From assembly GCA_027493445.1 (NCBI GenBank), contig JAOSKU010000001.1:1228501-1292500 (forward strand): DNA of 64,000 nt. The letters are read 5' to 3'. Shown in pieces: positions 1,962 through 44,320 of the stretch. Below the pieces are notes generated by a model, which saw only the letters and a list, made by a program, of their open reading frames with translations, searched no databases and was not told the origin of the DNA. The first letter of the stretch is position 1, and each line of letters begins with the position of its first letter. This DNA is from Thermoleophilia bacterium (GTDB taxonomy: Bacteria; Actinomycetota; Thermoleophilia; RBG-16-64-13). A program made the position numbers and the translations under genes.

Positions 1962-3898
1962 GTAGGGTCGAGGAGTGGCGCCTGGGACCGAGGTCCTGGT
2001 TTCCACCCCCCGCCACATCAAACCGTACGTGAGGTTCTCCCTCATACGGCTTTCCGACAACCTTCACCCTGCGGCATGTAAGGCCGTAGACCGCGTCGCC
2101 CTGTCGGGTAGAAGTACGTCAGGCCACTCCGTCGCTCCCATTCCACAAAGTCAGCCGGTCGGAGGCGGCCACGTGGTCCCTGACGCTTCTGCAGGAACCG
2201 CCACAGTCGAGACCGCACGTACCGATCAAGGTCCGCCAGCCTCTTCGTGGAGTTCCCAAGCGAGAAATAGGCCCGCCAGCCGCGAATGGTCCGGTTGAGA
2301 GTCTCCACCAACTCCCCGAGCCCCACCCGTAGGCGGGTCCTCTCGGTCAGCTGGCGAATCCTGGCTCGCACCCGGGCCATCGCCCTCTGGCTGGGCCAGG
2401 CGTAGGGCACCAAGCGCCCCGTCCGACGACTCGGCAACTTGTGGAAGTGAAACCCGAGGAAGTCGAAGCCATCTCTGTCCATCTCGACCACCTGGGTCTT
2501 TTCCGGATGCAAGGTGAGCTTCAGACGCCCAAGGAACCCGGCGATGAGATCGCGTGCCTGCTCGGCTGCCTTGCGGCTGCGGCAGACCACCACGAAGTCA
2601 TCGCAGTACCGATGGAGTTGACCGACGCCGGTGTGCTTGTCCTGCCACCACCTGTCCAGCGTGTGCAGGTAGATGTTGGCTAGGAGAGGACTGATCACCC
2701 CTCCTTGGGGAACACCGCACACCGTCGCCTGTCGCCTTCCCTCGATCACGACTCCCGCCCTAAGCCACTGGTCGATCAGCTTGAGCACCCGGCGGTCGCT
2801 GATGCGCCGCCTGACGAGTCCCATGAGGATCCCGCGGTCCACCTGGTCGAAGAAGCCCTCGATGTCGGCATCAAGGGCCGCCCAACCGCGGACCAGCGCC
2901 TCCTTGACCGCCAGGACCGCCTGGCCCGAGCTGCGCTTGGGACGATACCCGTACGAGCACTCAAGGAAGTTTGTCTCGAAGATAGGCTCCATGACGATCT
3001 TTGCGGCCTGCTGGACCACCCGATCACGAACGGTCGGGATGCCCAGGGGCCGCATGCGGCCGTCCGGCTTCGGTATCTCCACCCTGAGCACGGGGCTCGG
3101 GCGATACCTCTCGGCCCTCAGGTCCGCGGCGAGCTATGCCAGGTAAGCCTCGACGCCGTGGCGCTCCACATCTTCGATGCTCACGCCATCTGCGCCGGGG
3201 CGCCCCCGGTTCGCTCGCACCTCTTCCGGAGGCCCGCCACAGCACGTCGGGCCGAACGATGCGGTCATAGGAGAGCGTGGAACCGACGGCTCCGACTCGG
3301 TCTTGGCCGCAAGGTACAGTCGGCGCTGGAGTTCTCGTGACTTTTCATGCGGGTGTTGTTGGCTCTTAGCGAGCATGCACCGTCACTTCCCTCCCCGCTC
3401 GACACAGTTGAAGCAGGGGAGCTTCCCTGCGGCGGGTTCTGCTGTCCGCGCCCTCATCGGTACTATCTCCCCCTCCGACTTCTCACAGGGCGCCGGTCCG
3501 GACTTCGCACCACGTGCTTATACCGTGCCTCCCACGGGCTGTGGACCCGTGACCCCGTGAGACCTCCCTTGTTGCCCTGACGGCTTTCCCAGCGTTCCGC
3601 TCCCCCTACGCCGGAGGGTTCTTCGAGGCTTTCGCTTCCAGAGTCTTCACCTCTTGGCATGGCCTTCGCGATCGCTGAAACGCTCGGCTCCCTCTGGCTC
3701 CCCTTGCGGGGCTAACATATCGACGCTGCAGGATTCCCTTCATGGTACGGACTGCTTCCTTGCGCTCCCTTCGCGGGAAGATACTGCGCTTCACCACACC
3801 CGGTCACCCAGGTGCAGCGGCAGCCGGCTACGTGGCTCTCCTGGCGATTACCACAGCCGGACTCCCACCGGCTAGTCATCAGGACCTTCAAGGCACAC
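1962..3898 (-). mobile_element. Group II intron (IIC-like) inserted in attC
   Basis: Near its 3' end the minus strand carries the domain V hairpin (AGCCGTATGAGGG, then CCTCACGTACGGTTT). Next comes a domain VI stem ending CTCGACCCTAC with a candidate branch-point A seven bases from the end. The 5' end reads GTGTGCCTTGAAGG, followed by GATGACTAGCCGGTGGGAG, typical of bacterial group II introns. About 500 bases of intron RNA precede the encoded reverse transcriptase. The small size, lack of an obvious endonuclease domain, and location in an attC point to class C, members of which target attC sites and terminator stems. The intron ORF is broken, so any movement would need a protein supplied in trans. 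Confidence 0.8.
2042..3376 (-). pseudogene. Group II intron reverse transcriptase/maturase, decayed
   Basis: The main open part shows RT motifs in order: IPKPDGRMRPLGIPTVRDR, the D-x-D-like DADIEGFFDQVD, VPQGGVISPLLANIYLH, the active site RYCDDFVVVC (YxDD replaced by YCDD, usual for this group), then a maturase X domain. The reading frame is broken upstream. A TAG at 3134-3136 splits GVEAYLA from LAADLRAERY in the same frame. A short out-of-frame stretch near 3250-3290, whose alternative frame reads YDRIVRPDVLWRA, implies two compensating indels. No endonuclease domain is visible. I call it a pseudogene. Confidence 0.85.
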
Positions 3899-40105: not shown

Positions 40106-40417
40106 GTGAGCTCGAAACGGAAACACTGGGCCGAGATCGGCTTCGCGGTGCTGCGACCGGACGAGCGTCCGAACACCCTCCCTCCGGAGACGCGCTCCGT
40201 GCCGTACTACGCCCGGGTTAGCGGGTTTGTCACCGGGGAGCCGGCAGTGGGAGATACGGTCGAGATCGAGACGTCGCTGGGGCGGACGCTGCGGGGTGAG
40301 CTCCTGCAGATCGACCCCGCCTACAGTCACGGCTTCGGCCTCCCGGTCCTGGAGCTGATTGAGGCGGGGCTCGAGGCGAGGCTCCTCCTTTGGGATAAAG
40401 AGGACGGCGGCGAGTGA
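40106..40417 (+). CDS. ortA: 2-amino-4-ketopentanoate thiolase alpha subunit
   Basis: The 103-residue protein matches OrtA: WAEIGFAVLRPDERPNTLPPET at the start and VGDTVEIETSLGRTLRGEL, ending in a segment with PAYSHGFG. With OrtB it splits 2-amino-4-ketopentanoate with CoA into acetyl-CoA and alanine, a step of oxidative ornithine fermentation in clostridia. The start is GTG. It overlaps ortB (GTGA). The other ornithine-pathway genes (racemase, aminomutase, dehydrogenase) are not in the window. Confidence 0.82.
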   Translation: MSSKRKHWAEIGFAVLRPDERPNTLPPETRSVPYYARVSGFVTGEPAVGDTVEIETSLGRTLRGELLQIDPAYSHGFGLPVLELIEAGLEARLLLWDKEDGGE

Positions 40418-41844
40418 CCGGCGTGCGCAGCACCGGCTACGCGGACGTGCTTGCGCGGCAGAGCCAGATCCTGCGCGACGCCAGCGGCATCGACTACCAC
40501 GCCTTTCGCCGCGGTCGCCTGGAGTACGACTACGAGGGCCTCATGGCTTCGACGGGGTACGGGCTCGAGGAGATCGTAGAAATCCAGCGGGGCTGCAAGG
40601 TAGGCGGCACCCCGCTCTTGGAGCTGCCCAACCTCACCCGACTCGCGCGCGCTCTCGCCCCTCCCGGTAACGGGGCCCGGATCCTCATGAAGGATGAAGC
40701 CGCCAACGCGTCCGGCAGCTTCAAAGCCCGGCGCGCGAGCCTCTCGGTGTGGGAGGCCAAGCGTGCCGGCTATCCCGGGGTCATCGCGGCCACATCGGGC
40801 AACTATGGGGCGGCGGTGGCGTCCATGGCGGCCATGCGCGGGCTCGCCTGCTTGATCCTGCAGGAGACCTTCGACTCCCGCGGCGTGGGTCAGCCGGAGA
40901 TCCTGGAGAAGGGCCGAGCGTGCGAGGCGTACGGAGCCGAGGTGTGGCAGCTGACGGTGGGACCCGAGCTCTTCTACGTGCATCTGCTGCTGCTGGAGGA
41001 GACAGGGTACTTCAACGCGTCGCTGTACACGCCCTTCTCCGTCGCCGGCATCGAGACCCTAGGCTGGGAGATCGGCCGGGAGGTCGTGGCGCTGACCGGC
41101 AGGCCTCCTGCCGCCGTCCTGGTCACCCACGCGGGCGGCGGCAACGTCACCGGGACGGCGCGGGGACTGCAGGCGGCGGGCTGTTCCGAAACCCAGGTAG
41201 TGGGTGTGAGTGTGGATCTGCGCGGATTGCGGATGGACAGCGACCGCGATTTCAACCGCAAGAGTTTCACCACCGGTCACACCGGCTTCGGCGTCCCTTT
41301 CCTCCTGAACCCCGACAGGGTCGACGTGCCCCACAACGCCGCCCGGCCGCTGCGCTGGCTCGACCGCTACCTCATGGTCACGCAGGGCGCGGTTTTCTAC
41401 ACCACCCAGCTGCTGGCGGAGCTCGAGGGTCTGGAACGGGGGCCTACCGGCAACACCTCCCTGACCGCCGCGCTCAAGCTGTCCCAGGAGCTCCCCGCGG
41501 ACGACGTGATCGTCGTTCAGGAGACCGAGTACACCGGTGCGGGAAAGCATCCTACCGCCCAACTGACCTTCGCCCGCGCGAACGGGGTCAAGGTGATCCG
41601 AGGCCGGCCCGAAGACAATGTCCCCGGAACCAGCATCGCCATCCCCCGAGATCCCGCCGATCTGGACTATGAGGAGCTCGATCTGGAGAGAATTCGGACC
41701 GGCTATCTGAACGGCCGTCTCCGGCATATCGGGCTGGTGGGACCGGAGGACCTGACGGCCGCGGAGGTATGCTATCTCGCCGAGGAGACCGGCGTGAGCG
41801 AGGAGAGATGTCGAGCGCTTCTCCACGCCTCCATGGTCAGATGA
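40414..41844 (+). CDS. ortB: 2-amino-4-ketopentanoate thiolase beta subunit (PLP enzyme)
   Basis: The 476-residue protein is a fold-type II PLP enzyme. The cofactor lysine lies in NASGSFKARRAS, the phosphate-binding loop in a Gly-rich THAGGGNVTGTA, and SGNYGAAVASMA matches the usual SxGN motif. The N-terminus (YADVLARQSQILRDASGIDY) and overall length match OrtB. The gene directly follows ortA and precedes the XRE-cupin regulator gene by 16 bases. Confidence 0.85.
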   Translation: MTGVRSTGYADVLARQSQILRDASGIDYHAFRRGRLEYDYEGLMASTGYGLEEIVEIQRGCKVGGTPLLELPNLTRLARALAPPGNGARILMKDEAANASGSFKARRASLSVWEAKRAGYPGVIAATSGNYGAAVASMAAMRGLACLILQETFDSRGVGQPEILEKGRACEAYGAEVWQLTVGPELFYVHLLLLEETGYFNASLYTPFSVAGIETLGWEIGREVVALTGRPPAAVLVTHAGGGNVTGTARGLQAAGCSETQVVGVSVDLRGLRMDSDRDFNRKSFTTGHTGFGVPFLLNPDRVDVPHNAARPLRWLDRYLMVTQGAVFYTTQLLAELEGLERGPTGNTSLTAALKLSQELPADDVIVVQETEYTGAGKHPTAQLTFARANGVKVIRGRPEDNVPGTSIAIPRDPADLDYEELDLERIRTGYLNGRLRHIGLVGPEDLTAAEVCYLAEETGVSEERCRALLHASMVR

Positions 41845-41860: not shown

Positions 41861-42508
41861 GTGAGAATGAAGACCGACCAGATTGATATCGACGTGGCAA
41901 GGGAGTCGAGCACCGAGTCCGGCGAGGAGCAGGCCGGCGCACCCGCTCTTTCAGGACCGTCCGGCGAGGAGGTATTGGGAACCCGCATCAGGCAACGACG
42001 ACTCGATCTCCGCTTGACTCAAAGCGACATCGCTTCATCCGCAGGCCTCACGAAGAGCTTTGTGAGCCAGATAGAGCGAGGCGTCACCGCTCCCTCCATC
42101 TCCACCCTGCGCGGGATCGCGAAAGCGCTCGACGTCTCCCTCTTCTACTTCTTCCAGGAGAGCAACTCGGATCACACAGTGGTCCGCCGGCATCAACGGG
42201 CCTCCGTGCGCAATCCGGGAGCCAATGTCTACTACGAGCTCTTGACGCCCGATCTGCGGCGCAACATCCAGATGATCTGGCTGCACATGGAGCCGGGACA
42301 GGTCACGAGCGACGTGCCGCGCGCACACGACGGCGAGGAGTGCGCGGTGGTCCTGGAGGGAACGGTGGAGGTGGAGATCGGTGGCATCGTCCACACCCTC
42401 TACGAAGGCGACAGCATCAGCTTCGACTCCGGGCAACCACACCGCACCCGCAACGTGGGCTCCGGACCGGCCACGATCATCAGCGCGGTCACGCCACCCT
42501 CGTTCTGA
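41861..42508 (+). CDS. XRE-family regulator with cupin domain
   Basis: The 215-residue protein has a 40-residue acidic lead, a helix-turn-helix domain (IRQRRLDLRLTQSDIASSAGLTKSFVSQIERGVTAPSISTL) and a C-terminal cupin barrel with HMEPGQV, the motif 1 segment HDGEECAVVLEGTVEVEIGG and motif 2 GDSISFDSGQPHRTRN. Such proteins regulate amino-acid or polyamine catabolism with a small ligand in the cupin. Its place at the end of the ortAB operon suggests it controls that operon. The start is GTG 41861 or ATG 41867. Confidence 0.9.
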   Translation: MRMKTDQIDIDVARESSTESGEEQAGAPALSGPSGEEVLGTRIRQRRLDLRLTQSDIASSAGLTKSFVSQIERGVTAPSISTLRGIAKALDVSLFYFFQESNSDHTVVRRHQRASVRNPGANVYYELLTPDLRRNIQMIWLHMEPGQVTSDVPRAHDGEECAVVLEGTVEVEIGGIVHTLYEGDSISFDSGQPHRTRNVGSGPATIISAVTPPSF

Positions 42509-42522
42509 CGCTCGCCGCGCGG

Positions 42523-44088
42523 CTAGAACACCCGATCCGGCCGCGCCCCGCTCGCCTCCCGCTGTTGGGCCACGTTGTTGAGGGCCCGTATGTAGGCCTT
42601 GGCCGAGGCCTCCATCACGTCGATGCTGACGGCCTGCCCGGCGTAGGTCTTGCCGTCGACCTCCACCACCACCCTCACCTCGCCTAGGGAGTCCTTGCCC
42701 GAGGTCACCGAGCGCACCCGGTAGTCGAGCAGCTTGCCGGTGATGCCCACGGCGTTGTCGATGGCCCGGAAGATGGATTCCACCGAGCCGCCGCTGAAGG
42801 CCTTTCCCCGGCGCGGCTGGCCGCCCCTGAAAACCTCCACCTGGCTGGTGGGGATGATCTCCGAGCCGGCGCTCACGTAGAAGCGGGTCAGGCTGTAGAT
42901 GTCTTCACGCTCCCGGATCTCCTCGGTGGCCAGAGCCTCCAGGTCGAGGGCGGTCACCTGCTTCTTCTTGTCGGCAACCTCCTTGAAGCGGCGGAAGGCC
43001 TCATCGAGCTCGGCACCGGTCAGGTGGATCCCAAGCTCGGCCAGATGGGCTCTCAGCGCGTGGCGGCCGGAGTGCTTGCCGAGCACGATGTCCGACTCGC
43101 CCAGGCCGATGTCCCGGGCGCGCATGATCTCGTAGGTGGTGCGCTCCTTGAGCACGCCGTCCTGGTGGATGCCCGACTCGTGGGCGAAGGCGTTCTTGCC
43201 CACGACGGCCTTGTTGGGCTGCACCTGGTAGCCGGTCAGGTTGGAGACCATGCGGCTGGTGCGGGCGATCTCGGTGGTGTTCAGGTTCACCGGGCGCTGC
43301 ATGATGTCTTGGCGGGTGACCAGGGCCATGGCCACCTCCTCGATGGCGGCGTTGCCGGCCCGCTCGCCCAGGCCGTTCACGGCCACCTCCACCTGGGTAG
43401 CCCCCCGCTCCACCGCGGCCAGGGAGTTGGCCACGGCCAGCCCCAGGTCGTTGTGGCAGTGCACCGACACCACCACGCCGGCCAGGCCGGGGGCCTTCTC
43501 GTAGAGCGTGTCGATCAGGGCGGAGAACTCGCTCGGAAGCGTATACCCTACAGTATCGGGAATGTTGATGGTGGTGGCGCCCGCCTCGATGGCGGTTTGC
43601 AGCACCTCGGCCAGGAAGTCCACGTCGGAGCGGGTGGCGTCCATGGCCGAGAACTCCACCTCACCCGGGCAGAGCGAGACGCACAGCCCCACCAGTTCCG
43701 TGGTGATGGCGATCACCTCGGGCCGGCTCTTCTTGATCTGGTGCTGCAGGTGGATGTCGGAGGTGGAGATGAAGGTGTGGATGCGGGGGCGCTCGGCGTC
43801 CTTGATGGCCTCCCAGCAGGTATGGATGTCGCTCTCGACGCAACGGGCCAGGCCACAGATCACCGCCCCTTTCACCTCGCGGGCGATGGCCTGCACCGCC
43901 TCGAAATCACCCGGGCTGGTGGCCGGAAAGCCGGCCTCGATGACGTCCACCCCAAGGCGCACCAGCTGGTGAGCGATCTCCAGCTTCTCGGCCATGTTCA
44001 GGCTGATGCCCGGCGACTGCTCTCCATCGCGCAAGGTGGTATCGAAGAAAACGACGGGTTTCCCCAGATTGCGACGCGCGGCGGACAT
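42523..44088 (-). CDS. leuA: 2-isopropylmalate synthase
   Basis: The 521-residue enzyme condenses acetyl-CoA with 2-oxoisovalerate, the first committed step of leucine synthesis. Catalytic barrel motifs: [31 protein letters not shown] and the metal histidines in [16 protein letters not shown]. The C-terminal leucine-sensing domain (residues ~390-521) is present, so feedback inhibition is likely. I start at the ATG at 44088 after GAGGGGAGAG. The 639-residue ORF in the track reads back through the leader. Confidence 0.94.
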
Positions 44089-44158
44089 GACTCTCCCCTC
44101 TGTGGACTCGAACAGCTTCGAACGTGACGTGCCGGAAGGCGCCGGCTTCGCGTGACTT

Positions 44159-44176
44159 CTCCCCCTACCGGGGGAG
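44159..44176 (-). promoter_or_regulatory. GC hairpin at the end of the leuA leader ORF
   Basis: The minus strand reads CTCCCCC-GGTA-GGGGGAG, with the leader stop codon in the loop. No U-run follows. The 5' arm CUCCCC could alternatively pair with the leuA ribosome-binding site GGGGAG 55-70 bases downstream, so translational control is possible. Confidence 0.55.
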
Positions 44177-44284
44177 CAGAAGCAGGAGGGAAAGGAGCAG
44201 GGCCAGGCGGAGAGTGCGCGGCAAGGCGGGACGCCGAGAGGTTCCCGTGCCGGTGGTGCCGCGGATGTTCGCTGCCTGTTGCAT
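44165..44284 (-). CDS. leuL: Leucine leader peptide of leuA
   Basis: A 39-codon ORF ends in TLRLALLLSLLLLLPR: ten leucines in the last 15 residues, encoded by mixed CTC, CTG and CTT codons. Its ATG is eight bases past the -10 hexamer, so the transcript is essentially leaderless. It ends 76 bases before leuA, with its stop codon in a hairpin loop. This is the classic design of an amino-acid attenuation leader in which ribosome stalling at Leu codons reports scarcity of charged leucyl-tRNA. It could instead be mistaken for a hydrophobic membrane peptide. Confidence 0.75.
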   Translation of the reverse strand: MQQAANIRGTTGTGTSRRPALPRTLRLALLLSLLLLLPR

Positions 44285-44291
44285 GGGCGAC

Positions 44292-44320
44292 AGTGTAATG
44301 CACGACCGGGCGGGAAGCAA
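44292..44320 (-). promoter_or_regulatory. Promoter for leuL-leuA
   Basis: TTGCTT and TACACT separated by 17 bases on the minus strand, with the leader ATG starting eight bases beyond the -10. The gap upstream to 44506 holds nothing I can identify. Confidence 0.7.

What the first reader, a model, noticed from the sequence alone, without database searches (positions are those of the whole stretch)
44159..44320. Leaderless leucine leader peptide controlling leuA
A TTGCTT-N17-TACACT promoter fires directly onto an ATG whose 39-codon ORF ends with ten leucines in 15 residues and whose stop codon sits in the loop of a CTCCCCC/GGGGGAG hairpin. The 5' arm can also pair with the leuA ribosome-binding site GGGGAG. 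There is no U-run, so control may be translational rather than by transcription termination.
Basis: partly seen in the sequence, partly recalled or inferred. Interest (0 to 1): 0.72.

Follow-up and report, generated by a model that had tools for sequence, protein, structure and literature searches.

The report
Leucine-sensing leader upstream of leuA
Just before a leucine-making gene, this bacterium appears to make a tiny leucine-rich peptide whose leucine codons can also pair with and hide the gene's ribosome-binding site, which would let leucine shortage switch the gene on; the arrangement is conserved across a whole class of Actinobacteria and is a new version of a known kind of switch.

Summary
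The 39-codon ORF has 10 Leu in its last 15 residues, and its stop overlaps the loop of CTCCCCC-GGTA-GGGGGAG. leuA starts at 44088. It is not chance. Among class relatives chosen by leuA alone, 34 of 35 carry the same layout. A covariance model finds it in 99 of 199 class genomes, nearly always once per genome; the only hit outside the class is spurious. In 91 of 96 loci a TANNNT box lies 4-11 nt before the leader start codon, with almost never a Shine-Dalgarno (SD) there. Both hairpins show compensatory changes. The element also precedes the unrelated yeast-type leuA, and a leuS. The best model is translational attenuation: the Leu-codon run itself, not the hairpin arm, pairs with leuA's SD. 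Matched leader/SD pairs are more complementary than shuffled ones, also within lineages, and Leu codon choice fits the own SD. A ribosome short of leucyl-tRNA would cover this anti-SD and free leuA. An ensemble-folding swap test was not significant, and no experiment exists. This is a Thermoleophilia variant of the actinobacterial LEU element / leaderless leuL leaders. Stop-in-loop and arm-to-RBS pairing are not general.

The parts
44315..44320 (-). -35-like TTGCTT
   Evidence: sequence; TTG-like box at this spacing is the conserved -35 position in the class
44292..44297 (-). -10-like TACACT, 7 nt before the leader ATG (predicted leaderless start)
   Evidence: TANNNT 4-11 nt before an in-frame start codon in 91/96 loci, 0-7% in six other 8-nt windows
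44165..44284 (-). leader ORF, 39 codons, C-terminus LALLLSLLLLLPR*
   Evidence: Leu-rich leader at this place in the class
44174..44200 (-). leucine codon tract (codons 29-37)
44183..44194 (-). anti-SD part of the Leu tract (CUUUCCCU-C-CUG), 5' strand of the base stem
   Evidence: MFE structure of 44200-44086; class-wide complementarity
44159..44176 (-). hairpin 1, CTCCCCC-GGTA-GGGGGAG, overlapping last Leu codon and stop
   Evidence: variants CTTCCCC/GGGGAAG and CTCGCCC/GGGCGA in relatives
44131..44146 (-). hairpin 2, GCCGG-CGCCTT-CCGGC
   Evidence: covariation at 3 of 5 pairs, 0/500 shuffles reach the covariation score; hairpin 2 scores above its dinucleotide shuffles in 95/96 loci
44108..44121 (-). 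small third hairpin UUCGA-AGCU-GUUCGAG region before the SD
   Evidence: predicted in the window only
44091..44102 (-). leuA SD region CAG-A-GGGGAGAG, 3' strand of the base stem
42523..44088 (-). leuA, 2-isopropylmalate synthase (521 aa)
   Evidence: Pfam HMGL-like + LeuA_dimer

Best explanation
This is a leucine-responsive translational attenuator of leuA. Transcription starts at or next to the leader ATG (inferred), and ribosomes translate the leaderless 39-codon ORF. With enough leucyl-tRNA they pass and leave. The RNA then folds with hairpins 1 and 2 formed and the leucine codons (CUC/CUU/CUG, which read as an anti-SD) paired to leuA's Shine-Dalgarno, so leuA translation is low. When leucyl-tRNA is short, a ribosome stalls on the leucine codons, physically covers the anti-SD and frees the leuA SD. 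Shown: the anatomy, its class-wide conservation, compensatory changes in both hairpins, and Leu-tract/SD complementarity beyond shuffles. Inferred: the start site, the stalling, the direction of the response and the leucine dependence.
For: Class-wide conservation next to leuA. A leaderless signature in 91/96 loci, with SD-like sequence before 3% of leader starts but 96% of leuA starts. Matched leader/SD complementary runs average 6.90, against 6.21 permuted (z 6.6) and z 3.8 within 15 sequence clusters; runs of 8 or more occur in 30% of matched and 14% of mismatched pairs; a control leader region has none. Resampling Leu codons among synonyms lowers the fit to the own SD: 0 of 200 replicates reach the observed value. 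Examples: CTACTCCTTC/GAAGGAGTAG (L191), GCTTCTCCTC/GAGGAGAAGC (L019) against GCTCCTC/GAGGAGC (L018), TTCTCCTG/CAGGAGAA (L060) against TTCTCCTC/GAGGAGAA (L066). In the window the MFE fold is this structure, with an 8+3 bp base stem. A simulated ribosome on the Leu codons raises SD accessibility from 0.276 to 0.383 (40 loci up, 9 down, p 3e-7); window 0.23 to 0.40, control position 0.16. The same element sits before yeast-type leuA and before leuS.
Against: In full ensemble folds the SD pairs with its own Leu tract hardly more than with Leu tracts of other genomes (0.453 vs 0.412, p 0.22). In about half the loci the predicted pairing is below 0.5, and L014, L015 and L164 have no run over 4. The window's own perfect run is only 6 bp; its base stem needs two G-U pairs and a mismatch. 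The window's fold energy is unremarkable (z -1.45). PMC1262725 reports that leader mutations at S. coelicolor leuA had some effect, but not one consistent with classical attenuation.
Confidence: 0.68

Rival explanations
1. Transcription attenuation: hairpin 2 (or 1) acts as a terminator, and stalling on Leu codons prevents it.
For: In family f6 (L016-L019, L185, L192) hairpin 2 is a 7-bp stem followed within about 10 nt by a U-rich stretch. Other actinobacterial lineages have leucine leaders before leuA followed by clear terminators, e.g. GCCCCCGACCGGGGGCTTTTT in L200.
Against: No terminator or U-run in the window, and only the f6 loci have 7 or more T in the 20 nt after hairpin 2. No conserved antiterminator pairing was seen by eye between the hairpin 1 3' arm and hairpin 2.
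Confidence: 0.15
2. Rho-dependent or polarity control: ribosome release at the leader stop exposes C-rich RNA, and stalling masks it.
For: C-rich tract; no intrinsic terminator; the same was proposed for other actinobacterial leaders (PMC1262725).
Against: Does not explain Leu-codon/SD complementarity, codon tuning or conserved hairpins. No conserved rut-like segment was tested.
Confidence: 0.08
3. A regulatory protein binds the folded leader (as suggested for the LEU element in 2005), and the leader peptide is incidental.
For: Hairpin 1 is almost invariant in sequence; the Streptomyces mutation data reported in PMC1262725.
Against: Leu-rich ORF, start codon and -10 box are conserved, and Leu codon choice follows the SD. 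No candidate protein was sought here.
Confidence: 0.06
4. Ordinary leader ORF without leucine sensing: C-rich codons pair with any SD by composition.
For: The ensemble swap test is not significant. Leu codons CUC/CUU resemble an anti-SD by nature.
Against: Matched complementarity exceeds permutation within clusters and under synonymous resampling. The element occurs before two unrelated leuA types and leuS, and was not convincingly found before 30 ilvB genes in the class.
Confidence: 0.03

Closest known systems
LEU element upstream of leuA in Actinobacteria (Seliverstov et al. 2005, PMC1262725)
   Same: Leu-run leader ORF before leuA, base stem between the Leu codon run and the leuA SD, no obvious terminator.
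   Different: Here a CTCCCCC/GGGGGAG hairpin directly follows the Leu codons and a covarying second hairpin comes next. A pseudoknot, the core of the published element, was not looked for. Found in Thermoleophilia, and also before yeast-type leuA and a leuS there. I saw no explicit claim for this class in that paper's text.
leuL1 leader of Streptomyces lividans (MRFGLLLLSCRGEGL*), PMC8079986
   Same: Leaderless by mapped start, before leuA, Leu run, no typical terminator.
   Different: Short peptide; the Thermoleophilia hairpin 1 was not seen in the few leaders from other actinobacterial lineages that I examined.
Polycysteine leaderless short ORFs of mycobacteria (Canestrari et al. 2020; known to me through the citation and statement in PMC13236596)
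   Same: Leaderless ORF rich in the codon of the regulated amino acid, translational attenuation.
   Different: Cysteine, other genes; the paper itself was not held, so details were not checked.
Classical leucine/trp-type transcription attenuators
   Same: Control codons in a leader peptide.
   Different: No terminator/antiterminator pair in the window.

Membership tests
LEU element (PMC1262725) | upstream of leuA in an actinobacterium | tested here: met
[quoted passage not shown]
LEU element (PMC1262725) | base stem between the Leu codon run and the leuA SD | tested here: met
   the ensemble swap test does not discriminate
LEU element (PMC1262725) | conserved pseudoknot inside the base stem | not tested
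   the published alignment is in figures that are not held; nested hairpins were seen, no pseudoknot search was made
LEU element (PMC1262725) | alternative hairpins on the same base stem | tested here: inconclusive
   hairpins 1 and 2 inside the base stem; correspondence to the published helices unknown
Leaderless leader peptides of actinobacterial amino acid genes | start of transcription at the leader start codon | tested here: inconclusive
   promoter position only; no 5'-end data
Leaderless leader peptides of actinobacterial amino acid genes | no SD before the leader start | tested here: met
   3% against 96% before leuA
Classical transcription attenuator | intrinsic terminator before the structural gene | tested here: not met
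   none in the window; U-rich stretch only in family f6
Any described Rfam family | match above gathering score | tested here: not met
   only group II intron matches in the window

The most novel reading that the evidence does not exclude
In a whole class of Actinobacteria the leucine codons of a leaderless leader peptide are themselves the anti-Shine-Dalgarno of leuA, and their synonymous choice co-evolves with that SD. The sensor codons and the repressing RNA strand are then the same nucleotides, and a stalled ribosome derepresses by plain occlusion, with no need for rearranged helices.
Probability: 0.5. Interest if true: 0.62.

Novelty: new variant of a known kind. Interest (0 to 1): 0.5.

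Why it matters
The mechanism of the actinobacterial LEU element has been unclear since 2005, and mutation data in Streptomyces leuA were called paradoxical. The Thermoleophilia form gives codon-level covariation between Leu codons and the SD over roughly a hundred loci. It points to one simple model and to specific swap mutants that would test it. It also gives a leucine-linked motif, not in Rfam, that can be searched for in genomes.

Tried and rejected
Hairpin 1 5' arm pairing with the RBS: rejected as the main contact, because hairpin 1 wins. Peptide-specific arrest by LLPR-stop: not favoured, because the C-terminus differs between families (LLPR*, LLPLRGE*, LLPLSGEII*) while the RNA hairpin stays. 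Intrinsic termination in the window: no match. Leucine leaders before leuS and ilvB in the class: 1 of 30 leuS, and 0 convincing of 30 ilvB (one search had a strand error and is superseded). Searches read minus-strand loci of other classes in the wrong direction; redone. Ensemble pairing swap test: not significant.

Full report
OBSERVATION. On the minus strand of the window, TTGCTT (44320-44315) and TACACT (44297-44292) are 17 nt apart, and the second box ends 7 nt before an ATG at 44284. The ORF has 39 codons with 10 Leu in the last 15 residues. Its stop TAG (44167-44165) overlaps the loop of CTCCCCC-GGTA-GGGGGAG (44176-44159). leuA begins at 44088 behind GAGGGGAGAG. The protein is 2-isopropylmalate synthase by Pfam domains, including LeuA_dimer. 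The exact hairpin pattern occurs once in the 4.7 Mb genome. No Rfam family matches the region.

CONSERVATION. A search of 40 relatives by the leuA protein alone gave 30 full loci, and all have a Leu-rich leader with the C-run/G-run hairpin upstream. Four more fetched separately (G001, G002, G018, G025) also have it; one further, 49% identical partial hit (G036) does not. A named-genome scan with the hairpin pattern placed most hits before leuA in Thermoleophilia (Actinomycetota), so that is the class; the rest were mostly isolated hits in other phyla with no leuA nearby. Two records titled Bifidobacterium breve carry the element before a Thermoleophilia-like leuA and look mislabelled. A covariance model from 22 sequences hits 99 of 199 class genomes, nearly always once per genome. 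This is a lower bound for the element, since the model misses family f3, where it is present by eye; at least one weak class hit (L146) is spurious. Outside the class the model hits one genome, inside a coding region.

OTHER GENES. In family f4 the element stands before the unrelated yeast-type leuA (L145, L150, L153), and genome G025 carries both leuA types, each with its own leader. In G026 it precedes leuS. I read the next gene there as a yeast-type leuA in the same direction, from sequence near the end of leuS. The link is therefore to leucine, not to one gene family. No such leader was found before the other 29 leuS genes examined, nor convincingly before 30 ilvB genes.

LEADERLESS START. 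In 91 of 96 distinct loci a TANNNT box ends 4-11 nt before an in-frame ATG/GTG. The same box is found in 0-7% of loci in six other 8-nt windows, although the start was chosen with the help of the box, so the contrast is somewhat flattered. SD-like sequence stands before 3% of leader starts and 96% of leuA starts. In family f6 the promoter is near consensus: TTGAAA-N17-TATGAT, 10/12. 5'-end data are lacking.

STRUCTURE. Hairpin 2 (44146-44131 in the window) has compensatory changes at 3 of 5 pairs, and no shuffle of 500 reaches the covariation score. Over the 96 loci it scores above its dinucleotide-shuffled sequence in 95. Hairpin 1 is nearly invariant, but relatives have CTTCCCC/GGGGAAG and CTCGCCC/GGGCGA. 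The stop codon lies in the loop in 58 of 96 loci and just after the hairpin in 38. The conserved matter is therefore Leu codons abutting a hairpin, not the stop in the loop.

PAIRING WITH THE SD. The Leu tract just upstream of hairpin 1 pairs instead. Perfect matched runs average 6.90 nt, against 6.21 when SDs are permuted (z 6.6) and z 3.8 when they are permuted only within 15 sequence clusters; a control region of the leader averages 4.48. When Leu codons are redrawn among synonyms the fit to the own SD falls (6.24 against 6.90; 0 of 200 replicates as high). In the window, folding 44200-44086 gives exactly this architecture: CUUUCCCU-C-CUG with CAG-A-GGGGAGAG, enclosing hairpins 1, 2 and a small third one.

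FOLDING SIMULATION. Holding the ribosome footprint on the Leu codons single-stranded raises mean SD accessibility from 0.276 to 0.383 (40 up, 9 down, p 3e-7). A ribosome 10-13 codons upstream gives 0.301 (p 0.047), and one at the stop 0.303 (not significant). For the window the values are 0.23 (no ribosome), 0.40 (on Leu codons) and 0.16 (upstream control). Against this, ensemble pairing of the SD with its own Leu tract is not significantly higher than with swapped SDs (0.453 vs 0.412, p 0.22). The statistical case therefore rests on exact complementarity and codon choice rather than on folding energies.

MECHANISM. Translational attenuation by occlusion is the best account (0.68). Replete: leader translated, ribosome gone, Leu tract on the SD, leuA low. 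Starved: ribosome parked on the Leu codons, SD free, leuA high. Transcription termination is the main rival. It may operate in family f6, where hairpin 2 is followed within about 10 nt by U-rich sequence, and in other actinobacterial lineages whose leaders are followed by clear terminators.

COMPARISON. The closest described system is the LEU element of Actinobacteria, defined by a Leu-run leader, a base stem between the Leu run and the leuA SD, and a pseudoknot (PMC1262725). Three features are met here, and the pseudoknot was not tested, so I call it LEU-like rather than a member. Leaderless leuA leaders without a terminator are known from Streptomyces lividans by mapped starts (PMC8079986), and Leu leaders from Corynebacterium (PMC4046766, PMC5784534). 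No paper held combines Thermoleophilia with leader-peptide attenuation. Verdict: a real, class-wide, apparently undescribed variant of a known kind.

Noticed in passing
window 1962-2054 and 3740-3874, minus strand: Group II intron matches (RF00029, RF02003) close together, probably one group II intron.
   Followed up: no
window 41861-42508 plus strand and 42523-44088 minus strand: A helix-turn-helix/cupin regulator gene ends 14 nt from the end of leuA, convergent with it; next to it a PLP-dependent enzyme gene (40414-41844).
   Followed up: partly
L016-L019, L185, L192 (family f6): Hairpin 2 is an invariant GTTTGCC/GGCAAAC stem followed within about 10 nt by a U-rich stretch, so this family may use or retain an intrinsic terminator.
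   Followed up: partly
L077, L200, L202, L204, L205, L206, L208: Another actinobacterial lineage with yeast-type leuA has short leaders (e.g. MNRRELLLLT*) with a -10 box just before the start, then a stem after the stop and mostly a GC-rich terminator-like hairpin: a different attenuator architecture.
   Followed up: partly
L097: Leader MTSTRIHRSALLLL* before a leuA-like gene, followed by a terminator CCCCTCGGATACGGGGGGTTTTTT.
   Followed up: no
L149 / L236 (genome G026): The leucine leader precedes leuS, with a yeast-type leuA apparently following leuS in the same direction: leader-leuS-leuA.
   Followed up: partly
L049 126-146 and 524-544; G138 C75: Two divergent near-identical copies of the leader about 400 nt apart near a contig end; may be real or an assembly artefact.
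   Followed up: no
L040, L071: Records titled Bifidobacterium breve MAG carry a Thermoleophilia-like leuA with this element; probably mislabelled bins.
   Followed up: no
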